Shown here: positions 1 through 12,164 of the stretch, in pieces
Position numbering within the stretch: the stretch's first letter is position 1
Layout of the letters: the number at the start of each line of letters is the position of its first letter
Assembly: GCA_961205875.1 (NCBI GenBank)
Contig: OY540818.1
Span: 11,754,761-11,818,760, forward strand
Direction: 5' to 3'
Length of the DNA: 64,000 nt
From: Sialis fuliginosa
Lineage: Eukaryota > Arthropoda > Insecta > Megaloptera > Sialidae
Notes under the pieces: generated by a model
The model's database searches: none
What the model was told of the DNA's origin: nothing
What the model saw: only the letters and a program-made list of their open reading frames with translations
Position numbers and translations under genes: made by a program

Positions 1-980
1 GTAAGTCCTTGTGACTGCACCAATTTTGAATGTAGGTAAACCAATCTGATGTCAACTAAAGTGCCAAGTTGTGGAATAATTAAATAAGACATATTACTTT
101 TAATATATATTTTTTAATTTAATTCAAGCAGGGGGGTAATTTTTTTTTGTAATGAACAATTTTTATGGGTACTTATTATTATGTATTTGTTATTGTGATA
201 GTAACATAAGCACATGACAATATTTCTGTAAGACAATGTTGTCTTTGTTTACTTTTTACTAATTGTTCATTGTAATTGTAAGTATGGTTTGCAAAAACCA
301 TAGAAAAAGATTGAAGGTAGATATAGAGTTAGCAATAATTGTAACAAGATATAAGGTATGCAAATGTGTTTATCACTTGAAGGAAAATAATATGCATGTC
401 AGGTATTGAAGAATATATTGGGGGTGTGATATCATTCTGAAGATCTTGATATCTGTGATTTAATAAGTTAACAGTTTACTACCATGAAGGCAATGTAAAT
501 AAAATTTTAGAATAATGTTTTGTATTAAAATATGCAATTTAAAAAAAAAAACAACTGTGCAAACATTAAAATGTAGAACTTACACTAAAATATACTTGTG
601 CTTTTACAAAAAAGTTGTTTATTACTTTTATATATACATAGTATATTTTACTACAAAAATTATAGTGACCTATTTATAGAAAATTGAATGCTCTACAAAA
701 AAGATTCTAACAAATTTTCACGTAAAATGTGTCGTTCTTGAGATATCTTGAAAAAATAACTATTTTGGGATGTCACACGATTTTGATGATTTTTAAATGG
801 GACTGTCTTCTCAACAGACCCAACCAACCAACCAAGTTTTACTAATATTGCTTACGTTGTTTATGCGTGTGATAAGGATTCAGAGGACAGACAGACACAG
901 AACAAAAAGTGTTTGTTTTTTTCTCATTTTAAAACGATCACAATTTGCAAGAAATCAAAATAAATAACCATGCAACTGAC
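1..980. other. Spermine synthase intron (to window edge), with a repeat fragment
   Basis: No exon of the spermine synthase catalytic domain was found here on the minus strand. The part around 700-905 is an interspersed repeat fragment. Its stretch GGGACTG ... GTGTGATAAGGATTCAGAGG, followed by a GACA-rich tail, is shared with 15860-15960. Confidence 0.6.
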
Positions 981-1095
981 CTGAGCTTGGGAAATATGTC
1001 ATAAATGTGCCCCTCTTCATAATCGGATAAACATGACTGCGCTCTAATGTACCTTCTAAAGTAGTCAGTATAATCTCTCTCATTTCACGTGAACG
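981..1095 (-). CDS. Sms: Spermine synthase exon 2, distal version (B), likely mutually exclusive with A
   Basis: This 115-nt exon lies about 1.1 kb downstream of version A on the minus strand, with acceptor TTTATAG|CGT and donor CTCAG|GTCAG. It reads RSREMREIILTTLEGTLERS, then HVYPIMKRGTFMTYFPSS(G). It has the same phases as version A (0 in, 1 out) and the same layout: Arg start, helix, P-I-x-K-R-G, Tyr, Ser-Ser-Gly end. Most other residues differ. Using both exons together would add 227 nt and break the downstream frame, so only one can be used per transcript. There is no stop codon inside. Confidence 0.7.
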
Positions 1096-2752
1096 CTATA
1101 AACACATAACACATGCAAAACTAATATATTTTACCTTATTACTGGTGTCCATCGGACAGAAGAATTATTTATTTAATACAGTACATATGTAAATAAGTAA
1201 CCAATAAAAGAAGAACTTTTTTTGCAAAATAGAGGTTTTGAAGCAGTAAAAAGTCCTTAATAAAAGTAATATTTGAAAAAAAAATTTATTTGTGGTTAAT
1301 TTCAAAGTGCTACTTTATTTTCACAGTTTAATTTATTTAATTAATAAACATGTTTGATGAAAACTCAGAATAAGTTGAAAATACTTAATTTTATTAATAA
1401 AACCTATATGTATTTTTACTGTAATAGCTAGTAGCATTTTGAAAACAAGTTATTATTATTTGAATATGTTTTTCAATGAATTATTATCTAATATAACATC
1501 TAATGTACAAATACATATTTTCAAAAAGTGGTACCTAAATAAGTAATATAGAAATAGTATATAAGCTTAAGAGGTCAAATCAAATCAGTAAGAATAAGTT
1601 GAAATTTCACACAATTTTAAATAATAAATGAAAAGTTTGTGTGCTGCGCCACTGATAAGTAAAACGACAAATACTCGAGTGCATGTGAGAAAAATATACG
1701 CGCGAGTGAAAAAGACAGGTTACAGTTGCCTGGAAAAAGTAACTACCTAACATCTTTAAAACATTATGTACATATTTGTAGAACTTCAGCAAGTGACAAA
1801 AAATTATGAAGCTTGTTTGACATAGTATTTGTATGTTTTTAGTACGTCATATGAAGTACTTTTAATATTTATATAGCAGTCTGAACAAGAAATCAGTTTT
1901 AACAACAAATGAAGCTTTGAACGATAAACTGATAAATATAAATACAAACATGCTTAAATAAAAAATAATTTGATATTGGTTTACTGTACACCAGCCTCTA
2001 TGAATATGAGTTATGAGACTATGCAGTACATACATTTACCTTTTGAAGTTTTTACAAAAAAATTTATTTTCATAATTGTATGTACTCCATAGTATGTGTT
2101 CATAGCGGCAGATGTAAGGCAGACCAATACCAACAATATATATGAACCCATTCATATTTCATTCCAGCAAAGAATATTTAACAAAGTGAAATCAATGTGC
2201 TAGTCAATGCTAGAATATTATTTATAATCCAACCTGAACTAGAAAGATATACATCTAATTTGGCACCTCTTTTGATTGGAGGGAACACTTTATAACGATA
2301 ACTATCTAGAGAAACACGAATTTTCTGTTCCAATAACTTGAACCGCTGTAAATATTAAAATTATTTATATCATCGTTCTAAACTGGACCACATAACTGTG
2401 TATTCACTTATTATAATGATTGCTTGTATGCATTAAAATCTAATTAATGAAAATTGTATTTTCATCTCACCTCAAAAGTAAGTAAAGGTTCTTGAGCTTC
2501 GCCTTTAAAATATTCAACGTTGATGGTAATTAAACCATGATCAAATATTCTGATCGTAACAAGACTTCCTCGTTCAGCTGAATAAATTTTAAATGAATTT
2601 CCTTCAACAGCCGAGTTGAATATCAACTTTAAATTTGGTAAAAAATCACGAAGTGTATTTTCGATTTTACTTATTGTAGATGCTATTTGTTTATCATTTT
2701 TCATTTGGAGAGGATTAACAGAAAAATCTAATAAAACAGTATTAACAGCCAT
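981..2752 (-). CDS. Sms: Spermine synthase, 5' part of the gene (partial; continues beyond the left edge)
   Basis: Spermine synthase transfers an aminopropyl group from decarboxylated S-adenosylmethionine to spermidine in the cytosol. Only the N-terminal region is in the window. Exon 1 is 2752 down to 2471 (94 codons, ATG at 2752-2750, donor GAG|GTGAG). It contains SLVTIRIFDHGLITINV followed by EYFKGEAQ, matching the N-terminal spermine-synthase domain in animals (pattern ...LRIYPHGL...DGDAQ). The second exon is one of two candidates, 2345-2234 or 1095-981. Both encode the linker that precedes the catalytic domain (P-x-I-x-R-G pattern) and both end in phase 1 after Ser-Ser. The aminopropyltransferase catalytic domain would start in the next exon, which I do not find between 1 and 980, so it lies outside the window. 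The gene is divergent from the RecQ helicase gene at 3583. The family assignment rests on the N-terminal domain only, but the match runs through exon 1 and continues into exon 2. Confidence 0.85.
1096..2233. other. Intron between the two alternative second exons of spermine synthase
   Basis: AT-rich, with no coding similarity seen on either strand. I looked for a third version of exon 2 and saw none. Confidence 0.6.
2234..2345 (-). CDS. Sms: Spermine synthase exon 2, proximal version (A)
   Basis: This 112-nt exon has an acceptor TTTACAG|CGG and a donor TCAG|GTTGG on the minus strand. It is entered in phase 0 from exon 1 and left in phase 1. It reads RFKLLEQKIRVSLDSYRYKV, then FPPIKRGAKLDVYLSSS(G). 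The segment PPIKRGAKLDVYLSSSG aligns with the conserved linker of spermine synthases (PPI-x-RG-x-x-x-D-x-Y). The aspartate and tyrosine positions are kept, so this copy looks closer to the vertebrate form than copy B. Confidence 0.8.
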
Positions 2753-3582
2753 CTCTTTTAATATTTTTAAACGACTTGGAAATGAATTAATTTTAATATA
2801 TTGATTTATGAATATTAATAAAGAACAGTAAACTAAAAAAGAGCTGGGAATTTACACCATAGATAAATTTACACTGACCGGTGAAATTGAAAAATAAATT
2901 TCAGAAATAGGTAGAATGAGACCGAAGCTAGCTTTAAATCGTACAGAATGACAACTCAGTAATTTTAATATTTTTTTTTTAATTTGAACCATTTGAACCA
3001 TAGAATTTGAACGAAATTTAATAATATGATTATTCTGTGTTTATATGTAGAAACGTTTTAATAAAAACCAGGTAAAAATATACGTTTTTGTCAGGGTTTT
3101 TGTTATATTATGTATATAATAAATCAATTTAATTAAAATATTTTTTTATGTAATATTCATGAAATCATAGACTTATAGTCTATGCATTAAATTGATAAAT
3201 GAAGTAAATTTTATTTTAAATTTGGTATGTTGGTGTCTGTGAAAGCTTCTAATCATTGTTAAGTTCACATCAATTCGATCTATTTGAAATGTTCGTTTTG
3301 AATATGACATATTTAAGTCATGTTTTTAATTTTTAATAATGTGTTTGTGATTTGATTATAGATAATTAAAATATTAAAGACTTTCATATTTTACATATTT
3401 TCGTAAATTCAAGTTAAAAAATAATAATTGTGAACTATTCAAATAATTAATTTTATTTGAAGAAATCATGTGTAAATCAAATGAAATATTTCAGTTTAAT
3501 CAGAGAACAAAGTTGAATAAACTTCTATAGTGTGTTCTGTAATGGTATAAATATTCGTAAATAGTAACAAAAAAACATTAAA
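2753..3582. promoter_or_regulatory. Divergent intergenic region of spermine synthase and the WRN-type helicase
   Basis: About 830 bp separate the two start codons, so both core promoters and 5' UTRs should lie here. Arthropod initiator-like TCAGT occurs on the minus strand at 2877-2873 (about 120 bp before the spermine synthase ATG) and on the plus strand at 3491-3495 (about 90 bp before the helicase ATG). The motif is short, so these start sites are guesses. No other gene is visible. Confidence 0.45.
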
Positions 3583-7116
<3,534 letters not shown>

Positions 7117-8405
7117 TGTTGTATCTGTTCTTTTCTTAATTACGTAATATTAAGTTGTTTATAGATATATTTTATTTTGTTGATATTTTCTATAATGTAT
7201 TTCACATTTCTTGTTATATTTTTCTACTCCATATTAAATTATTTTCATTAATTTTTCTTATTTTATTTTTACTATACCTTTTACAGTATGAATTCACACT
7301 TATGAAACATAATTTCACATTAATGAAAACAGATTTCACACAAATGAAATATAAAATCACATTAAAGAAAACTGATTTTGCACAAATAAAATATAATTTC
7401 ACATTAAAGAAAACTGATTTCACACAAATGGAAACAGAATTCACATATAGGAAAATTAATTAGTATAGTGTAGCATTTATTTATGAAAGGATTTATAAAA
7501 TTAAACAAGAAATTATACTTGAAGAACATACAAAAAACATTTTATTTATATACTCATATTTACATAATACTTAAGTACAAAACACAAATAATATAAACAA
7601 ATTTAACAAAAAATTGATTTACAATTCCTTCATTTAAATTACAGTCTATTCACAAATTTTTTTAACAAATACTATATTTTTTAGTTTTATTTTATAATAT
7701 ACTTTTACATTACATAAAATGAAACTGTAATTATAATTAATAATTGAAAAAAATCAATACCTAAGCTGAGATCAATTATAAGAAAATTGATATTTTTGTA
7801 ATTCTTTAAATAATGCTAAATTAATATTCTATTGGTAACAAAATCGATACATATACTAATTTCTTTAGTATTTATAATCATAAGTCATTTCTTAGCATCA
7901 AATATATATTTAAATAAACATTAAAATTAATGGTAACTATATTTCCATACATTTTTAGAGATACAACAAATAAATCTAAATTAACAAAAATTATGTCACT
8001 AGAATATATTTTCGATAACTCCTAATTATTTTTTTAATAAAATTGTGCACTCTAATAATAATAATTAACAAAAATTGATTATAAGTAATTTTGTTATTTT
8101 ATTTTAAAATTAACAGGTGTATAATATCAAGCATTTTGATTAACTGACTTATGCCACAGCCTGTATTAAATTTAATAATTAAAAAAATTGCTAAAAATGG
8201 CAAAAAATTGAGACTCGTTTATAAAATTCGATATAAAAACAATCATGAATCGTTTTGGTCTTATATATTTATTTAAAAGCAATTTTTGCTAAATGAACAC
8301 TATATACCTATTATTAACACTTTCTCAAGTAATAAATTATAATTTTCACAACCAAATTGAAGGCTTTAACAAGAAGATTTTATTAAAATATTAAGTGCAA
8401 TATAT
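7117..8405. other. 3' flank of the helicase gene; includes a 21-bp repeat, otherwise AT-rich
   Basis: Apart from the repeat at 7290-7457 I see no gene. The first AATAAA-like hexamer after the helicase stop lies inside the repeat (about 7385), so the 3' UTR may run through it. Confidence 0.5.
7290..7457 (+). repeat. Eight tandem copies of a 21-bp unit (minisatellite), open as a heptapeptide repeat
   Basis: Eight consecutive 21-bp units, each containing a TTCACA-like core followed by an ATGAAA-like core. Odd and even units alternate in sequence, so a 42-bp higher-order unit is also visible. On the plus strand the array is open and reads as seven-residue repeats such as NFTLMKT DFTQMKY, with an open stretch from 7155 to 7463 (102 codons). 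That stretch starts with a very hydrophobic segment coded by T-rich DNA. Coding status is unknown; it may just be 3' UTR of the helicase gene. Confidence 0.85.
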
Positions 8406-8607
8406 AGTAGTTATCGATAAAAATATACTTAAACTAAAATATACACCTTAACCACAATAAAACAATGTCACTCGACACGTGTTTCGACTTCACAAGAAGT
8501 CCTCATCAGGAGCCTAACAGTTCCAGACTCTAGTTAAGGTGTATATTTTAGTTTAAGTGACTAGAAACCACAGTTTCTCCGTTTTTCCAGTAGTTGATAA
8601 AAATATA
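8406..8607. mobile_element. Small foldback insertion with direct repeats and a hammerhead-like core
   Basis: The body is flanked by near-identical direct repeats, 8406-8427 and 8589-8607, which differ by a 3-nt gap. Inside are perfect 25-bp inverted arms at 8429-8453 and 8534-8558. The loop between the arms carries the ribozyme-like sequence listed separately. The direct repeats look like a target-site duplication. No open frame is present, so it would be non-autonomous. Confidence 0.7.
8468..8515 (-). ncRNA. Hammerhead ribozyme-like motif (minus strand)
   Basis: On the minus strand: CTGATGA (8509-8503), one extra G, stem II GACTTC/GAAGTC with a TTGT loop (8501-8486), GAAA, then the palindrome ACACGTGT as a very short stem III, followed by C. 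Stem I can form from GCTC before CTGATGA and GAGT after that C. This is the catalytic core order of a hammerhead (CUGANGA, stem II, GAAA, stem III, NUH). The predicted cleavage falls after the C at 8474. The extra G before stem II and the short stem III reduce certainty. Short palindromic stem III is known from animal hammerheads that work as dimers. Confidence 0.6.
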
Positions 8608-10679
8608 GTTACTCAAATAATATTTTCCAATCCTTTTCTAACTAAATTAATCTAAGAATTAAATTTACAAACAAATATTTGGTTATTAACACAATTAATC
8701 GATTGATAATTATTTTACTGAGTACTTCTTAATAAATAAAACGTCAACTTCTTTTTCATAAATTATTTATATTAATCATTTAATCATCACTATTATTAAC
8801 TAATCAGTCACGGTTTAAAACGTTGTGTCATAAAATTTAAATTCAAACTATCAAGTTAAAATTTACGTGTATAACAACAATAAATAAGTCAATAATTAAT
8901 TGCAATTAAACAAAAATTTCAAAACTGTTTTTTTAGCAGGTGTGTAAATTTTATTTGGCCACGACCTATTCATAATAACATGTTGCAAAACATCTTCATT
9001 AATTTTCTGCGCACTTTGTCAAATTGATACAATAAAAGTGCAAATCACAAAGTTTGTTGTGTGAGATAAATATTAATGTATTATTCCAAAAAATATTAAG
9101 ACCTGTGCCTCGTGAGCCAGCCTTGAGGAACACTTGAAATAATATTAGGGTCGGATTTATATGTTGGGGCCTCCTGGGAAGCTGTACAAGTGTTGGCTTT
9201 TAATTTGCCATTAATACAGTTATACCACAAGTTACGGCTCTTTGACTTATGTACAATTTTAATTGCCACCCTATCTGAAATCCGACACCAAAAAAATATA
9301 ATAACTCATTCAATACTTATGATAATTCCTCATTAACATTATTTCTTATGGCAACTGTCACATTTACAATTAATCAGTTTAAAACTAGATATAAGTACAA
9401 CGGTAAAGTTTCTCATATTCAGTATTGAACGTATTAAGTAATTCTGAATGAATAATTACTTTATTTCAATGGCACACAATTATCTTCATCAATGTATATA
9501 TGTAGAGTAAATCAATTAAAGATTTATACAAATGATAATATAAATAAATTAAATAAAAGGATATTACGGAGATGCCAAAAGTTATCAATAACGGGAGTGA
9601 CTGGACGAGTTATCAATAGGGAAACATCGTAGTACTAACCAATGTGTGTATTTTTTTTTCTTTTTAATAAAAGAAATAAATCTTGAGTTATGCTTGACAC
9701 ACTCTTAACATACCGTAAATAGTTATACTGATATCTTTATTTATACATGACTTTTTAATAGTATTTTATCATGTTGATAATATAGTAATAATTATATAAA
9801 TTAAAATCACAGACATTAATTTAAATAAATTAAAGAACACGGTTCAAATAAATTTATAATTAAAATTTCTATGGATTATTATTTGTGTACAATATATATA
9901 CACTCAACTAGCTTAAAATTCTAAAGCTTTATATTTTAAGGTAACACTCTTAGCAGCACACACATTTTAAATTTATTAATTTACTTCTAAGAATGTTATT
10001 ATTATTTTACATAATAATATATTTTAGTTTGCACTCCCAACTATGCTTTAATTAGTTTTACGTTTTTATTAAAAATTAAATTATGTATTAATATAATATT
10101 AGCCCGAACAAATGAAATTATTTAGGTAATCTTCTCACATGCAGTCTATTGTAGATTGAGTAGCCTTTTTTGTCTAAAATAATCCAGTTTAGCCACATGG
10201 GAACAATAGTAGACCGCATTCAACAAGAAAATCATTATTTACTGTTACAATGCTGTTTAAAATAATGCAATATAGTGCTAATTATCTGAATGATAGAATA
10301 TTGGTTAATGGATAATCGACATTGTTAATTTTTTAAATAAAATATCAAAGAAAGTACAAATAAATAATAATAATTTCATACACTCTTTATATTAATAACT
10401 ACATTTTTTGGAATTTACTTTTAGTTTCAATAATTATTACACATTATGCAATTGTAAAATAATCATATTTGCTTATATACTTGTGCGTCATTTACAATTG
10501 GTTAAAAAATTCACGAAATTTAGTAGAACTATGACAAACACATATTTAAATCGAGTATGGTTAGACTAACATGATATTAATAAAATTACATACATATATA
10601 TATTACGTACATGTAGTTAAATTATACATATAACTGGTTAAAAATATTTAAGAAACATTACCAATACTGTGTAAATAAA
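8608..10679. other. Convergent intergenic DNA between the helicase and the RING-CH ligase
   Basis: AT-rich, with no gene seen. It must contain the 3' UTR and poly(A) site of the RING-CH gene (minus strand) just below 10680. One possible transposon remnant lies at 9147-9290. Confidence 0.5.
9147..9290. mobile_element. Possible short hAT-like remnant
   Basis: The left end AGGGTCGGATTT and the right end AAATCCGACACC are roughly inverted to one another, and the interior is richer in GC (GGGGCC) than its surroundings. The target duplication is not clear. Confidence 0.3.
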
Positions 10680-12164
10680 TTATAAGAATAAATTTACTTC
10701 CTCGGATTTCAAATTTGGTAACGATTTAAATACATGTTTGTTTTTATTATTACTTTCTGATATATTTTGCACATCAACTAAAGATACTATAGAATGTTTC
10801 CCATTTTTTAAACGACTATTCGTATGTTCTATATCCAAAGCTAACATTTCTTGAATATTAATTTCTAACGGATCAAAACCAGGAGTTTCTAGCCTAAAAA
10901 AATTATCCTGTTTTGATGTACCGGGACAACTGTTAACGGCAGGTTTTCCTTGGACATTATCGTTGCTGTTACCGCTATCAGAACCGGATATGTACTTTTC
11001 ACAAAATACAAAAGTATTTTCAACTTCGTTAGATGAACCAGGCACATCGATTGTACTGCTTTTTTCACCGAATACATTATTTTTATCTAAGTCGAGTGAA
11101 TAGTTAAGGCTATTGTTTGAATTTGATATCAATGCCAGTGAGCAGTTATCTACATTTGTTAAATTGTTATTATAGTTAGAGGTAGTGTCAACACAACTCG
11201 CATTTAAGGGATTGCTTTCTATGTTTGCCACAACTTGAGCAGGTCTAACATTCGTTCTACTCGGGTATGATCCCGTATTGTTTGACGAACGTACCGACAC
11301 TCGGAAAGTTGGCGACGGAGGGGCAATCACTTTTTCTGGAGCGTTTTGAATTAAAATAATCCTAAAATGTATATTTGTTAATTCTGATAATTTGATTTAA
11401 TATTGTCATACTATTACCTATTGTGAGCTCTCCATCTATTACATAAGTGTAGATACTGACGACATTGTATATACATAAACACAGCTCCACCAGTAAAACC
11501 TACAGCAACCACAACGAGTTTTGTCCAAAATGGCCACGCTGAAAAATGAATACAAGTTATTGTTGATCTAAAAGTTAGTTTTAATACCTAAATTTTGAGT
11601 ATATTACCTATAAGTCCTTTCTGTACTTCTTCAGCAGCTCTATCAATAAGGACAAATAGAGACCACACTACACAAAGTGCAGCAACACAATGAAACAATA
11701 CGGCACAACATAGACGACGACGTTCAACACTAGACATTTCTAATCGACGCCACTGTAAGAAATAAATTATATTATTGCATTCTTTACACATTTTAACATA
11801 CATTACTACATATTAACGTTTATGCTATGAATAGACTTACTTCATTAAACGGTTTTATTTTCGTGTGCATTATAAAGTTAAATTTACATAATTCACACGA
11901 CCTAGTTTCTGAAGCTGTTAACCATTGTTGTAAACAAGCTTGATGAACATACTTTAAACTTCCCGAACAGTAACAAGGAGCCAATAATGGGTTCATATTG
12001 TCGGCTTCACAGTGGCATATCCGACATATATCATTGTTCGAAAAAGATATATTAGAACTCGATGAGCCCAATCGAGAACTGCCCTGAGTATACACAGGCT
12101 CTGTTGATGGAACTATCCAGTTTTCAACATCATTGTTTTTAACAGCTATTCTTTGTAATGGCAT
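10680..12164 (-). CDS. MARCHF8: MARCH1/8-type membrane RING-CH E3 ubiquitin ligase, four exons
   Basis: E3 ligase of endosomal and plasma membranes that ubiquitinates membrane proteins. Exons (minus strand): 12164-11841, 11752-11608, 11538-11418, 11361-10680. All are GT-AG with consistent phases, giving 423 residues. The RING-CH zinc finger is C4HC3: Cys47, Cys50, Cys64, Cys66, His74, Cys77, Cys90, Cys93, containing [10 protein letters not shown] first membrane helix spans about 122-144 ([11 protein letters not shown]). A second starts after [17 protein letters not shown] at about 164-183 and is followed by FMYIQC. A juxtamembrane Arg-rich stretch and the IQNAPEK motif (about 201-207) also match MARCH1/8. 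The C-terminal tail of about 215 residues is Asn/Ser-rich, with no recognised domain, and is much longer than in vertebrate MARCH8. The ATG at 12164 gives MPLQRI, like the vertebrate start. An AG just upstream (TTCATTAG) could be the acceptor of a 5' UTR intron. Orthology to MARCH1 versus MARCH8 cannot be resolved in insects. Confidence 0.95.

What the first reader, a model, noticed from the sequence alone, without database searches (positions are those of the whole stretch)
981..2345. Two alternative second exons of spermine synthase that cannot be spliced together
Exons A (2234-2345, 112 nt) and B (981-1095, 115 nt) both have good splice sites, enter in phase 0, leave in phase 1 and encode the same linker (P-x-I-x-R-G ... 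Ser-Ser-Gly). Together they add 227 nt, which breaks the frame, so use must be mutually exclusive. Their sequences differ in most other positions, so two enzyme forms with different N-terminal to catalytic-domain linkers are predicted. I do not know of a report of this.
Basis: partly seen in the sequence, partly recalled or inferred. Interest (0 to 1): 0.75.

Follow-up and report, generated by a model that had tools for sequence, protein, structure and literature searches.

The report
Alternative spermine synthase exon pair
An insect spermine synthase gene carries two old, strongly diverged copies of its second coding exon, only one of which can be used in any working messenger RNA, so the gene most likely makes two forms of this polyamine enzyme that differ where its two halves pair and join.

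Summary
Exon 1 (2752-2471), exon A (2345-2234) and exon B (1095-981) lie on the minus strand with GT-AG sites; five more exons lie just outside the window. Exons 1-A-3-7 and 1-B-3-7 give intact 369- and 370-residue spermine synthases; A+B, or neither, hits early stops. A and B are homologous (13 of 37 residues; 0 of 5000 shuffles); overlapping sub-pieces aside, B is the best match to A among 374 splice-bounded candidates. Both look maintained rather than decaying. This is a pair of homologous mutually exclusive exons, a known kind; my searches found no description of one in spermine synthase. Corrections: the shared end is Ser-Ser-Asp, not Ser-Ser-Gly; P-x-I-x-R-G is exact only in A; A-B splicing is not physically forbidden, it destroys the frame; the segment is the dimer-interface edge plus interdomain loop, not only a linker. 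[quoted passage not shown] No RNA data and no other insect genome were available.

The parts
2471..2752 (-). exon 1 of spermine synthase, coding part (ATG at 2752), 282 nt, ends in phase 0, donor GAG|gtgaga
   Evidence: aligned from residue 55 on to human 3C6K
2234..2345 (-). alternative exon 2A, 112 nt, phase 0 in, phase 1 out; RFKLLEQKIRVSLDSYRYKVFPPIKRGAKLDVYLSSS(D)
   Evidence: isoform A 369 aa, no internal stop
981..1095 (-). alternative exon 2B, 115 nt, phase 0 in, phase 1 out; RSREMREIILTTLEGTLERSHVYPIMKRGTFMTYFPSS(D)
   Evidence: isoform B 370 aa, no internal stop
2346..2470 (-). intron 1-A, 125 nt, GT-AG
1096..2233 (-). intron A-B, 1138 nt, GT-AG, too long for steric exclusion; holds short dispersed repeats (about 1542-1727)
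1..980 (-). first part of intron B-3 (1263 nt in all). Exons 3-7 lie beyond the window edge, at L003 6717-6595, 6530-6444, 6380-6223, 6163-5972 and 5882-5727 (window coordinate = L003 coordinate minus 7000)

Best explanation
A and B are the two copies of an old tandem exon duplication in a single-copy insect spermine synthase gene, kept as mutually exclusive exons. Pre-mRNA splicing joins exon 1 either to A or to B and then to exon 3; each choice gives a full-length enzyme with the same start and the same catalytic domain but a different segment of about 38 residues (human residues about 89-128: last part of the N-terminal dimerisation domain, the interface turn with Pro112, and the loop towards the central domain). 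Including both, or neither, shifts the frame into early stops, so exclusivity in productive mRNA is guaranteed at least by loss of frame (and presumably nonsense-mediated decay). Shown here: gene completeness, homology, splice sites, phases, frame logic, one locus, signs of constraint on both. Inferred: that both are used in cells, and that they tune dimer stability or activity rather than chemistry.
For: Both isoforms are complete and match human spermine synthase (Pfam PF01564 and PF17284 above cut-off in both). A-B: 13 of 37 identical residues, 0 of 5000 shuffles reach the score; A-human 0 of 5000, B-human 4 of 5000. Reciprocal best pair among 374 candidates, overlapping sub-pieces aside. 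Codon-position identity 18, 25, 13 of 37 at positions 1, 2, 3, position 2 reached by 10 of 3000 codon-shuffled controls; 3 of 13 identical residues use the same codon, so the split is old. Under simulated neutral decay to the same divergence 44 of 20000 copies keep frame and splice sites and 5 of 20000 also the protein match. Introns around A and B are 125, 1138 and 1263 nt against 59-89 nt for the four introns between exons 3 and 7; acceptors of A and B have the lowest pyrimidine fractions (0.53, 0.59 against 0.65-0.82 for the five others). One locus: all 7 reported matches to the full protein at E up to 1 are exons of this gene, and exon B matches once at E up to 10.
Against: No transcript data of any kind. 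No other insect genome could be reached, so conservation of the pair is untested (searches confirmed no relative). The N-terminal family PF17950 is below its cut-off in both isoforms (22.6 and 21.1 of 25 bits). The decay simulation and the donor matrix are crude (A used as ancestor, no indels; recalled frequencies). B fits human spermine synthase less well than A. Codon position 1 is as alike as observed in 145, and position 3 in 1154, of 3000 controls, so the coding signal rests on position 2 and on the score. No specific device enforcing exclusivity was found.
Confidence: 0.86

Rival explanations
1. Only one exon (probably A) is in general use; the other is a rare or vestigial exon whose reading frame survives by luck or recent loss.
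For: A matches human spermine synthase better (41 against 19; 301 against 294 bits for whole proteins). No RNA evidence for either.
Against: At this divergence a neutrally decaying copy rarely keeps frame plus splice sites (44 of 20000) or frame, sites and protein match (5 of 20000). B has the better donor (10.63 against 6.74 with a recalled matrix). B keeps a human-like proline that A lost (Tyr-Phe-Pro-Ser-Ser-Asp against human Tyr-Trp-Pro-Thr-Ala-Asp; A has Tyr-Leu-Ser-Ser-Ser-Asp).
Confidence: 0.1
2. Poison-exon control: the A+B or skipped product is made on purpose to lower enzyme output by decay of the frameshifted mRNA, besides making two proteins or instead of it (as an addition it does not exclude the best explanation, so the odds overlap).
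For: A+B and skipping both give early stops (after 134 and 105 codons), and the A-B intron is an ordinary GT-AG intron, so both are physically possible.
Against: Alone it does not explain why both exons keep family-like protein sequence; a poison exon needs no such constraint. No direct evidence.
Confidence: 0.1
3. Assembly error or merged paralogue: B belongs to a second gene copy.
For: None found.
Against: Exon B matches once in the 392 Mb assembly, all 7 reported matches of the full protein are this locus (counts are lower bounds for repeats), and only one set of catalytic exons follows.
Confidence: 0.02

Closest known systems
Homologous (tandem-duplicated) mutually exclusive exons as defined by Pillmann et al. 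2011 (PMC3228551, passages seen) and Kassiopeia (PMC3923563, passages seen)
   Same: Neighbouring internal exons of similar length, same phases and splice-site type, detectable protein homology; here also loss of frame if both or none are used.
   Different: Not shown at RNA level here; exclusivity device unknown; the gene is a small metabolic enzyme (genes met in my listings: myosin heavy chain, Dscam, nicotinic receptor alpha6, SNAP-25, OGDH).
[quoted passage not shown]
   Same: Spermine synthase with two protein forms that do not differ at catalytic residues.
   Different: The text does not say which exon differs; figures are not held and supplements could not be opened. It may or may not be the same exon pair.
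Human spermine synthase SMS (PDB 3C6K)
   Same: Same protein family; exon A/B aligns to residues about 89-128, including Pro112 (Snyder-Robinson variant P112L; PMC4730321, passages seen).
   Different: The human variant list includes c.329+5G>A (PMC11203672, passages seen), i.e. an exon end at codon 110, inside the insect exon, so human exon boundaries differ here; no such exon pair is known to me in human (recall, not searched).
Mutually exclusive OGDH exons 4a/4b (PMC7969005, start of abstract seen in the listing)
   Same: A metabolic enzyme whose property is set by mutually exclusive exons.
   Different: There splicing is enforced by distant branch points that restrict intron length; here the intron is 1138 nt and branch points were not tested.

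Membership tests
Homologous mutually exclusive exons | adjacent internal exons of similar length | tested here: met
   112 and 115 nt, adjacent, same strand
Homologous mutually exclusive exons | same reading-frame phases and compatible splice sites | tested here: met
   phase 0 in, 1 out, GT-AG for both
Homologous mutually exclusive exons | protein sequence homology | tested here: met
   13 of 37 identical, 0 of 5000 shuffles; reciprocal best of 374 candidates, overlapping sub-pieces aside
[quoted passage not shown]
   no RNA data; frame logic demands it for productive mRNA
Homologous mutually exclusive exons | hard exclusion by steric closeness or by U2/U12 mismatch (known devices, recalled; not required) | tested here: not met
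   A-B intron 1138 nt; all junctions GT-AG, donors of A and B (gttggatt, gtcagttg) unlike the recalled U12 donor
Homologous mutually exclusive exons | competing RNA structures in the introns (one known device; not required) | tested here: inconclusive
   best duplex of intron 1 with intron A-B reached by 41 of 60 shuffles, with intron B-3 by 15 of 60; intron A-B against intron B-3 was not tested; no comparative data
Spermine synthase (SMS) | best solved-structure match is spermine synthase, over N-terminal and catalytic parts | tested here: met
   3C6K 301 and 294 bits from residue 55 on, next best about 63 bits
Spermine synthase (SMS) | aminopropyltransferase domain PF01564 and tetramerisation domain PF17284 | tested here: met
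   both above curated cut-offs in both isoforms
Spermine synthase (SMS) | N-terminal domain PF17950 (SpmSyn_N) | tested here: inconclusive
   22.6 bits (A) and 21.1 bits (B), cut-off 25; residues from 55 on align to human 3C6K
Spermine synthase (SMS) | spermine-forming activity | not testable with these tools
   needs an assay

The most novel reading that the evidence does not exclude
Insects use an ancient splicing switch in spermine synthase: two forms that differ at the dimer-interface edge and interdomain loop, able to form homo- and heterodimers of different stability or activity, so that tissue- or stage-specific splicing sets spermine output from a single gene without a paralogue.
Probability: 0.3. 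Interest if true: 0.65.

Novelty: new member of a known kind. Interest (0 to 1): 0.42.

Why it matters
Spermine synthase has one locus here; its loss causes Snyder-Robinson syndrome in people and reduced viability, short life and poor locomotion in flies (PMC5668419). The swapped segment contains the position of a human disease variant (P112L, dimer interface, protein at about 20% of control in patient cells; PMC4730321). If insects naturally run two versions of that segment, they offer a ready experiment on how the dimerisation domain controls the enzyme, and a splicing-level control of polyamine balance. It would also mean that fly rescue with the RA form alone, the one fly form named as a rescue construct in the section I read, may describe only one of two enzymes.

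Tried and rejected
Third exon copy: none among 374 candidates of 100-127 nt in the window and 37 kb beyond it. Retrocopy or paralogue that would record an mRNA form: none among the scored matches. Relatives in viral contigs with isoform A (5 pattern hits) or with an alignment of parts of both forms and human (82 pattern hits), and in bacterial/archaeal genome contigs (51 pattern hits): no relative confirmed, as expected for an animal gene; the second genome-contig scan was not used. Docking/selector pairing of intron 1 with the later introns: not above shuffles. Rfam in window 1-12000: 0 matches. A bacterial promoter scan has no bearing on an insect gene.

Literature: eight full-text searches aimed at alternative or exclusive exons in spermine synthase showed no paper describing them; 0 papers. 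(CG4300): 5 papers; I saw passages of all five and one section of PMC5668419; 9 papers, judged by listing only; 20 listed of 4,200; 15 listed of 39; both judged by listing only; 1 paper (pig placenta), listing only; 1 paper (PMC5668419); 54 papers, 25 listed, 0 of the 25 hold 'spermine synthase'. Searches were about exclusive exons in general and about P112L. Kassiopeia and Pillmann et al. do not contain 'spermine' or 'CG4300' in the main text. The Hatje and Kollmar 2013 paper (DOI from memory) and the 3C6K paper are not held, so a prior prediction in a supplement or database cannot be excluded.

Structure prediction was not run: the tool's description accepts only proteins read directly from the DNA, and the spliced isoforms are joins of exons.

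Full report
What is there. The window is G000:C10:11754761-11818760 of a 392 Mb genome in 20 contigs. TTAGG/CCTAA tandem repeats stand at 3 of the 7 contig ends fetched, and contig C20 holds a cytochrome oxidase I frame that is open under the invertebrate mitochondrial code; with the low G+C I take it to be an insect, order not determined. The gene's remaining exons were not in the window. I fetched the flank and read five more exons at L003 6717-6595, 6530-6444, 6380-6223, 6163-5972 and 5882-5727. Splicing 1-A-3-4-5-6-7 gives 369 residues and 1-B-3-4-5-6-7 gives 370 residues, both ending at the same stop; 1-A-B-3 stops after 134 codons and 1-3 after 105. Exon borders 3-7 were set by eye from splice consensus and the human alignment, not from RNA.

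Identity of the gene. phmmer against solved structures gives human spermine synthase 3C6K at 301 bits (A) and 294 bits (B); the next entries are other aminopropyltransferases at about 63 bits or less. Pfam PF01564 and PF17284 are above cut-off in both isoforms; the N-terminal family PF17950 is below its cut-off in both (22.6 and 21.1 of 25 bits). All 7 reported matches of the full protein at E up to 1 are exons of this gene, and exon B matches once at E up to 10. A locus on C8 holds three further PF01564 matches, presumably spermidine synthase.

Are A and B real and related? Protein alignment: 13 identical of 37, score 36, 0 of 5000 shuffles as good; A against human 0 of 5000, B against human 4 of 5000. 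I then scored every open AG...GT-bounded stretch of 100-127 nt with the right phases in 202,000 bases (both strands of 101 kb): 374 candidates. Leaving aside overlapping sub-pieces of A and B, B is the best match to A (36, best unrelated 9), A the best match to B (36, best unrelated 8), and the two top the list against human (41 and 19, best unrelated 5). No third copy appeared. Identity by codon position is 18, 25, 13 of 37 for positions 1, 2, 3; position 2 is that high in 10, position 1 in 145 and position 3 in 1154 of 3000 codon-shuffled controls aligned the same way, so only position 2 stands out. Of 13 identical residues 3 use the same codon, so silent sites look saturated and the duplication old. 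A crude neutral simulation (substitutions only, A as ancestor) leaves frame and splice sites intact in 44 of 20000 and also the protein match in 5 of 20000. So both exons look maintained.

The split codon is G|AT, so both forms read Ser-Ser-Asp. P-x-I-x-R-G is exact in A (PPIKRG); B has PIMKRG, and the A/B/human alignment there is ambiguous by one residue: MAFFT keeps Pro112 in B by opening a gap further on, while an ungapped alignment of the last 17 residues (6 of 17 identical between A and B) puts Tyr at Pro112 and Pro at Pro113. 'Cannot be spliced together' should read 'cannot both be in a productive mRNA': the A-B intron is a normal GT-AG intron of 1138 nt.

What the segment does. Counting from Gln148, the exon aligns to human residues about 89-128. 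PMC4730321 (passages seen) places P112 at the dimer interface in a turn between two strands, and reports P112L protein at about 20% of control in patient lymphoblast lines. PMC11203672 (passages seen) places R130 and V132, just downstream, in the loop between N-terminal and central domains. The catalytic-domain exons are shared by the two insect forms. So the two forms should differ in dimer stability, interdomain geometry or regulation, not in chemistry; this step is inference. The human variant list in PMC11203672 includes c.329+5G>A, an exon end at codon 110, so the human exon boundaries differ from the insect ones here.

How exclusivity could be kept. Loss of frame is sufficient for productive mRNA. 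The A-B intron is too long for steric exclusion and the donors are unlike the U12 type (recalled). Pairing of intron 1 with the two later introns is no better than shuffles (41 of 60 and 15 of 60 reach it), a weak test without relatives. Features usual for regulated exons (recalled) are present: introns of 125, 1138 and 1263 nt around A and B against 59-89 nt for the four between exons 3 and 7, and the lowest pyrimidine fractions of the gene at the A and B acceptors (0.53 and 0.59 against 0.65-0.82 at five others). The donors of exon 1, A and B score 11.65, 6.74 and 10.63 with a recalled matrix, above the other four donors (1.2-5.83).

Known or new. Mutually exclusive homologous exons are a well-described kind, and the criteria of Pillmann et al. 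(similar length, splice pattern, frame, homology; PMC3228551, passages seen) are met. For spermine synthase I found no description in eight full-text searches aimed at it, most results being judged by listing only. But PMC5668419 (section 6 read) states that Drosophila CG4300 has two annotated transcripts, RA and RB, with isoforms PA and PB that share catalytic and binding residues, and names RA as the fly rescue construct. The differing exon is not named in the text and I could not see the figures or supplement, so the same pair may well be annotated in flies. I therefore rate this a new member of a known kind, moderately interesting, with high confidence in the exon pair and unknown expression.

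Noticed in passing
window about 631-943: SINE-like dispersed repeat in the intron downstream of exon B: 39 further long matches of 77-86% identity across the genome, with only 40 of 5094 first-look candidates scored. 'SINE-like' is a guess from copy number and length.
   Followed up: partly
window about 1542-1727: Short dispersed repeats inside the A-B intron, 42 partial matches elsewhere in the genome.
   Followed up: partly
window 3583 and on, + strand: A DEAD-box helicase gene (PF00270 on an exon from about 3726; RecQ/WRN-like by recall) with a possible ATG at 3583, about 830 bases from the spermine synthase ATG and head to head, so the two may share a promoter region.
   Followed up: partly
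L003 5726-5622, minus strand: After the spermine synthase TAA stop the frame stays open for 35 codons; Drosophila CG4300 appears in a table of stop-readthrough genes whose extensions carry a nuclear localisation signal (PMC3840789, one passage seen). By my rough estimate such an open stretch arises by chance in about 1 of 20 cases at this composition, so this is only a lead.
   Followed up: partly
G000:C8:8719599-8722354 (L008, L010, L011): A separate aminopropyltransferase gene (PF01564 matches in three pieces), presumably spermidine synthase.
   Followed up: no
Drosophila CG4300 (literature): CG4300 is listed with a value of 2.7 in a table on somatic sex-differential expression during metamorphosis (PMC2656526, one passage seen); it would be worth asking whether the two isoforms differ by sex.
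   Followed up: no
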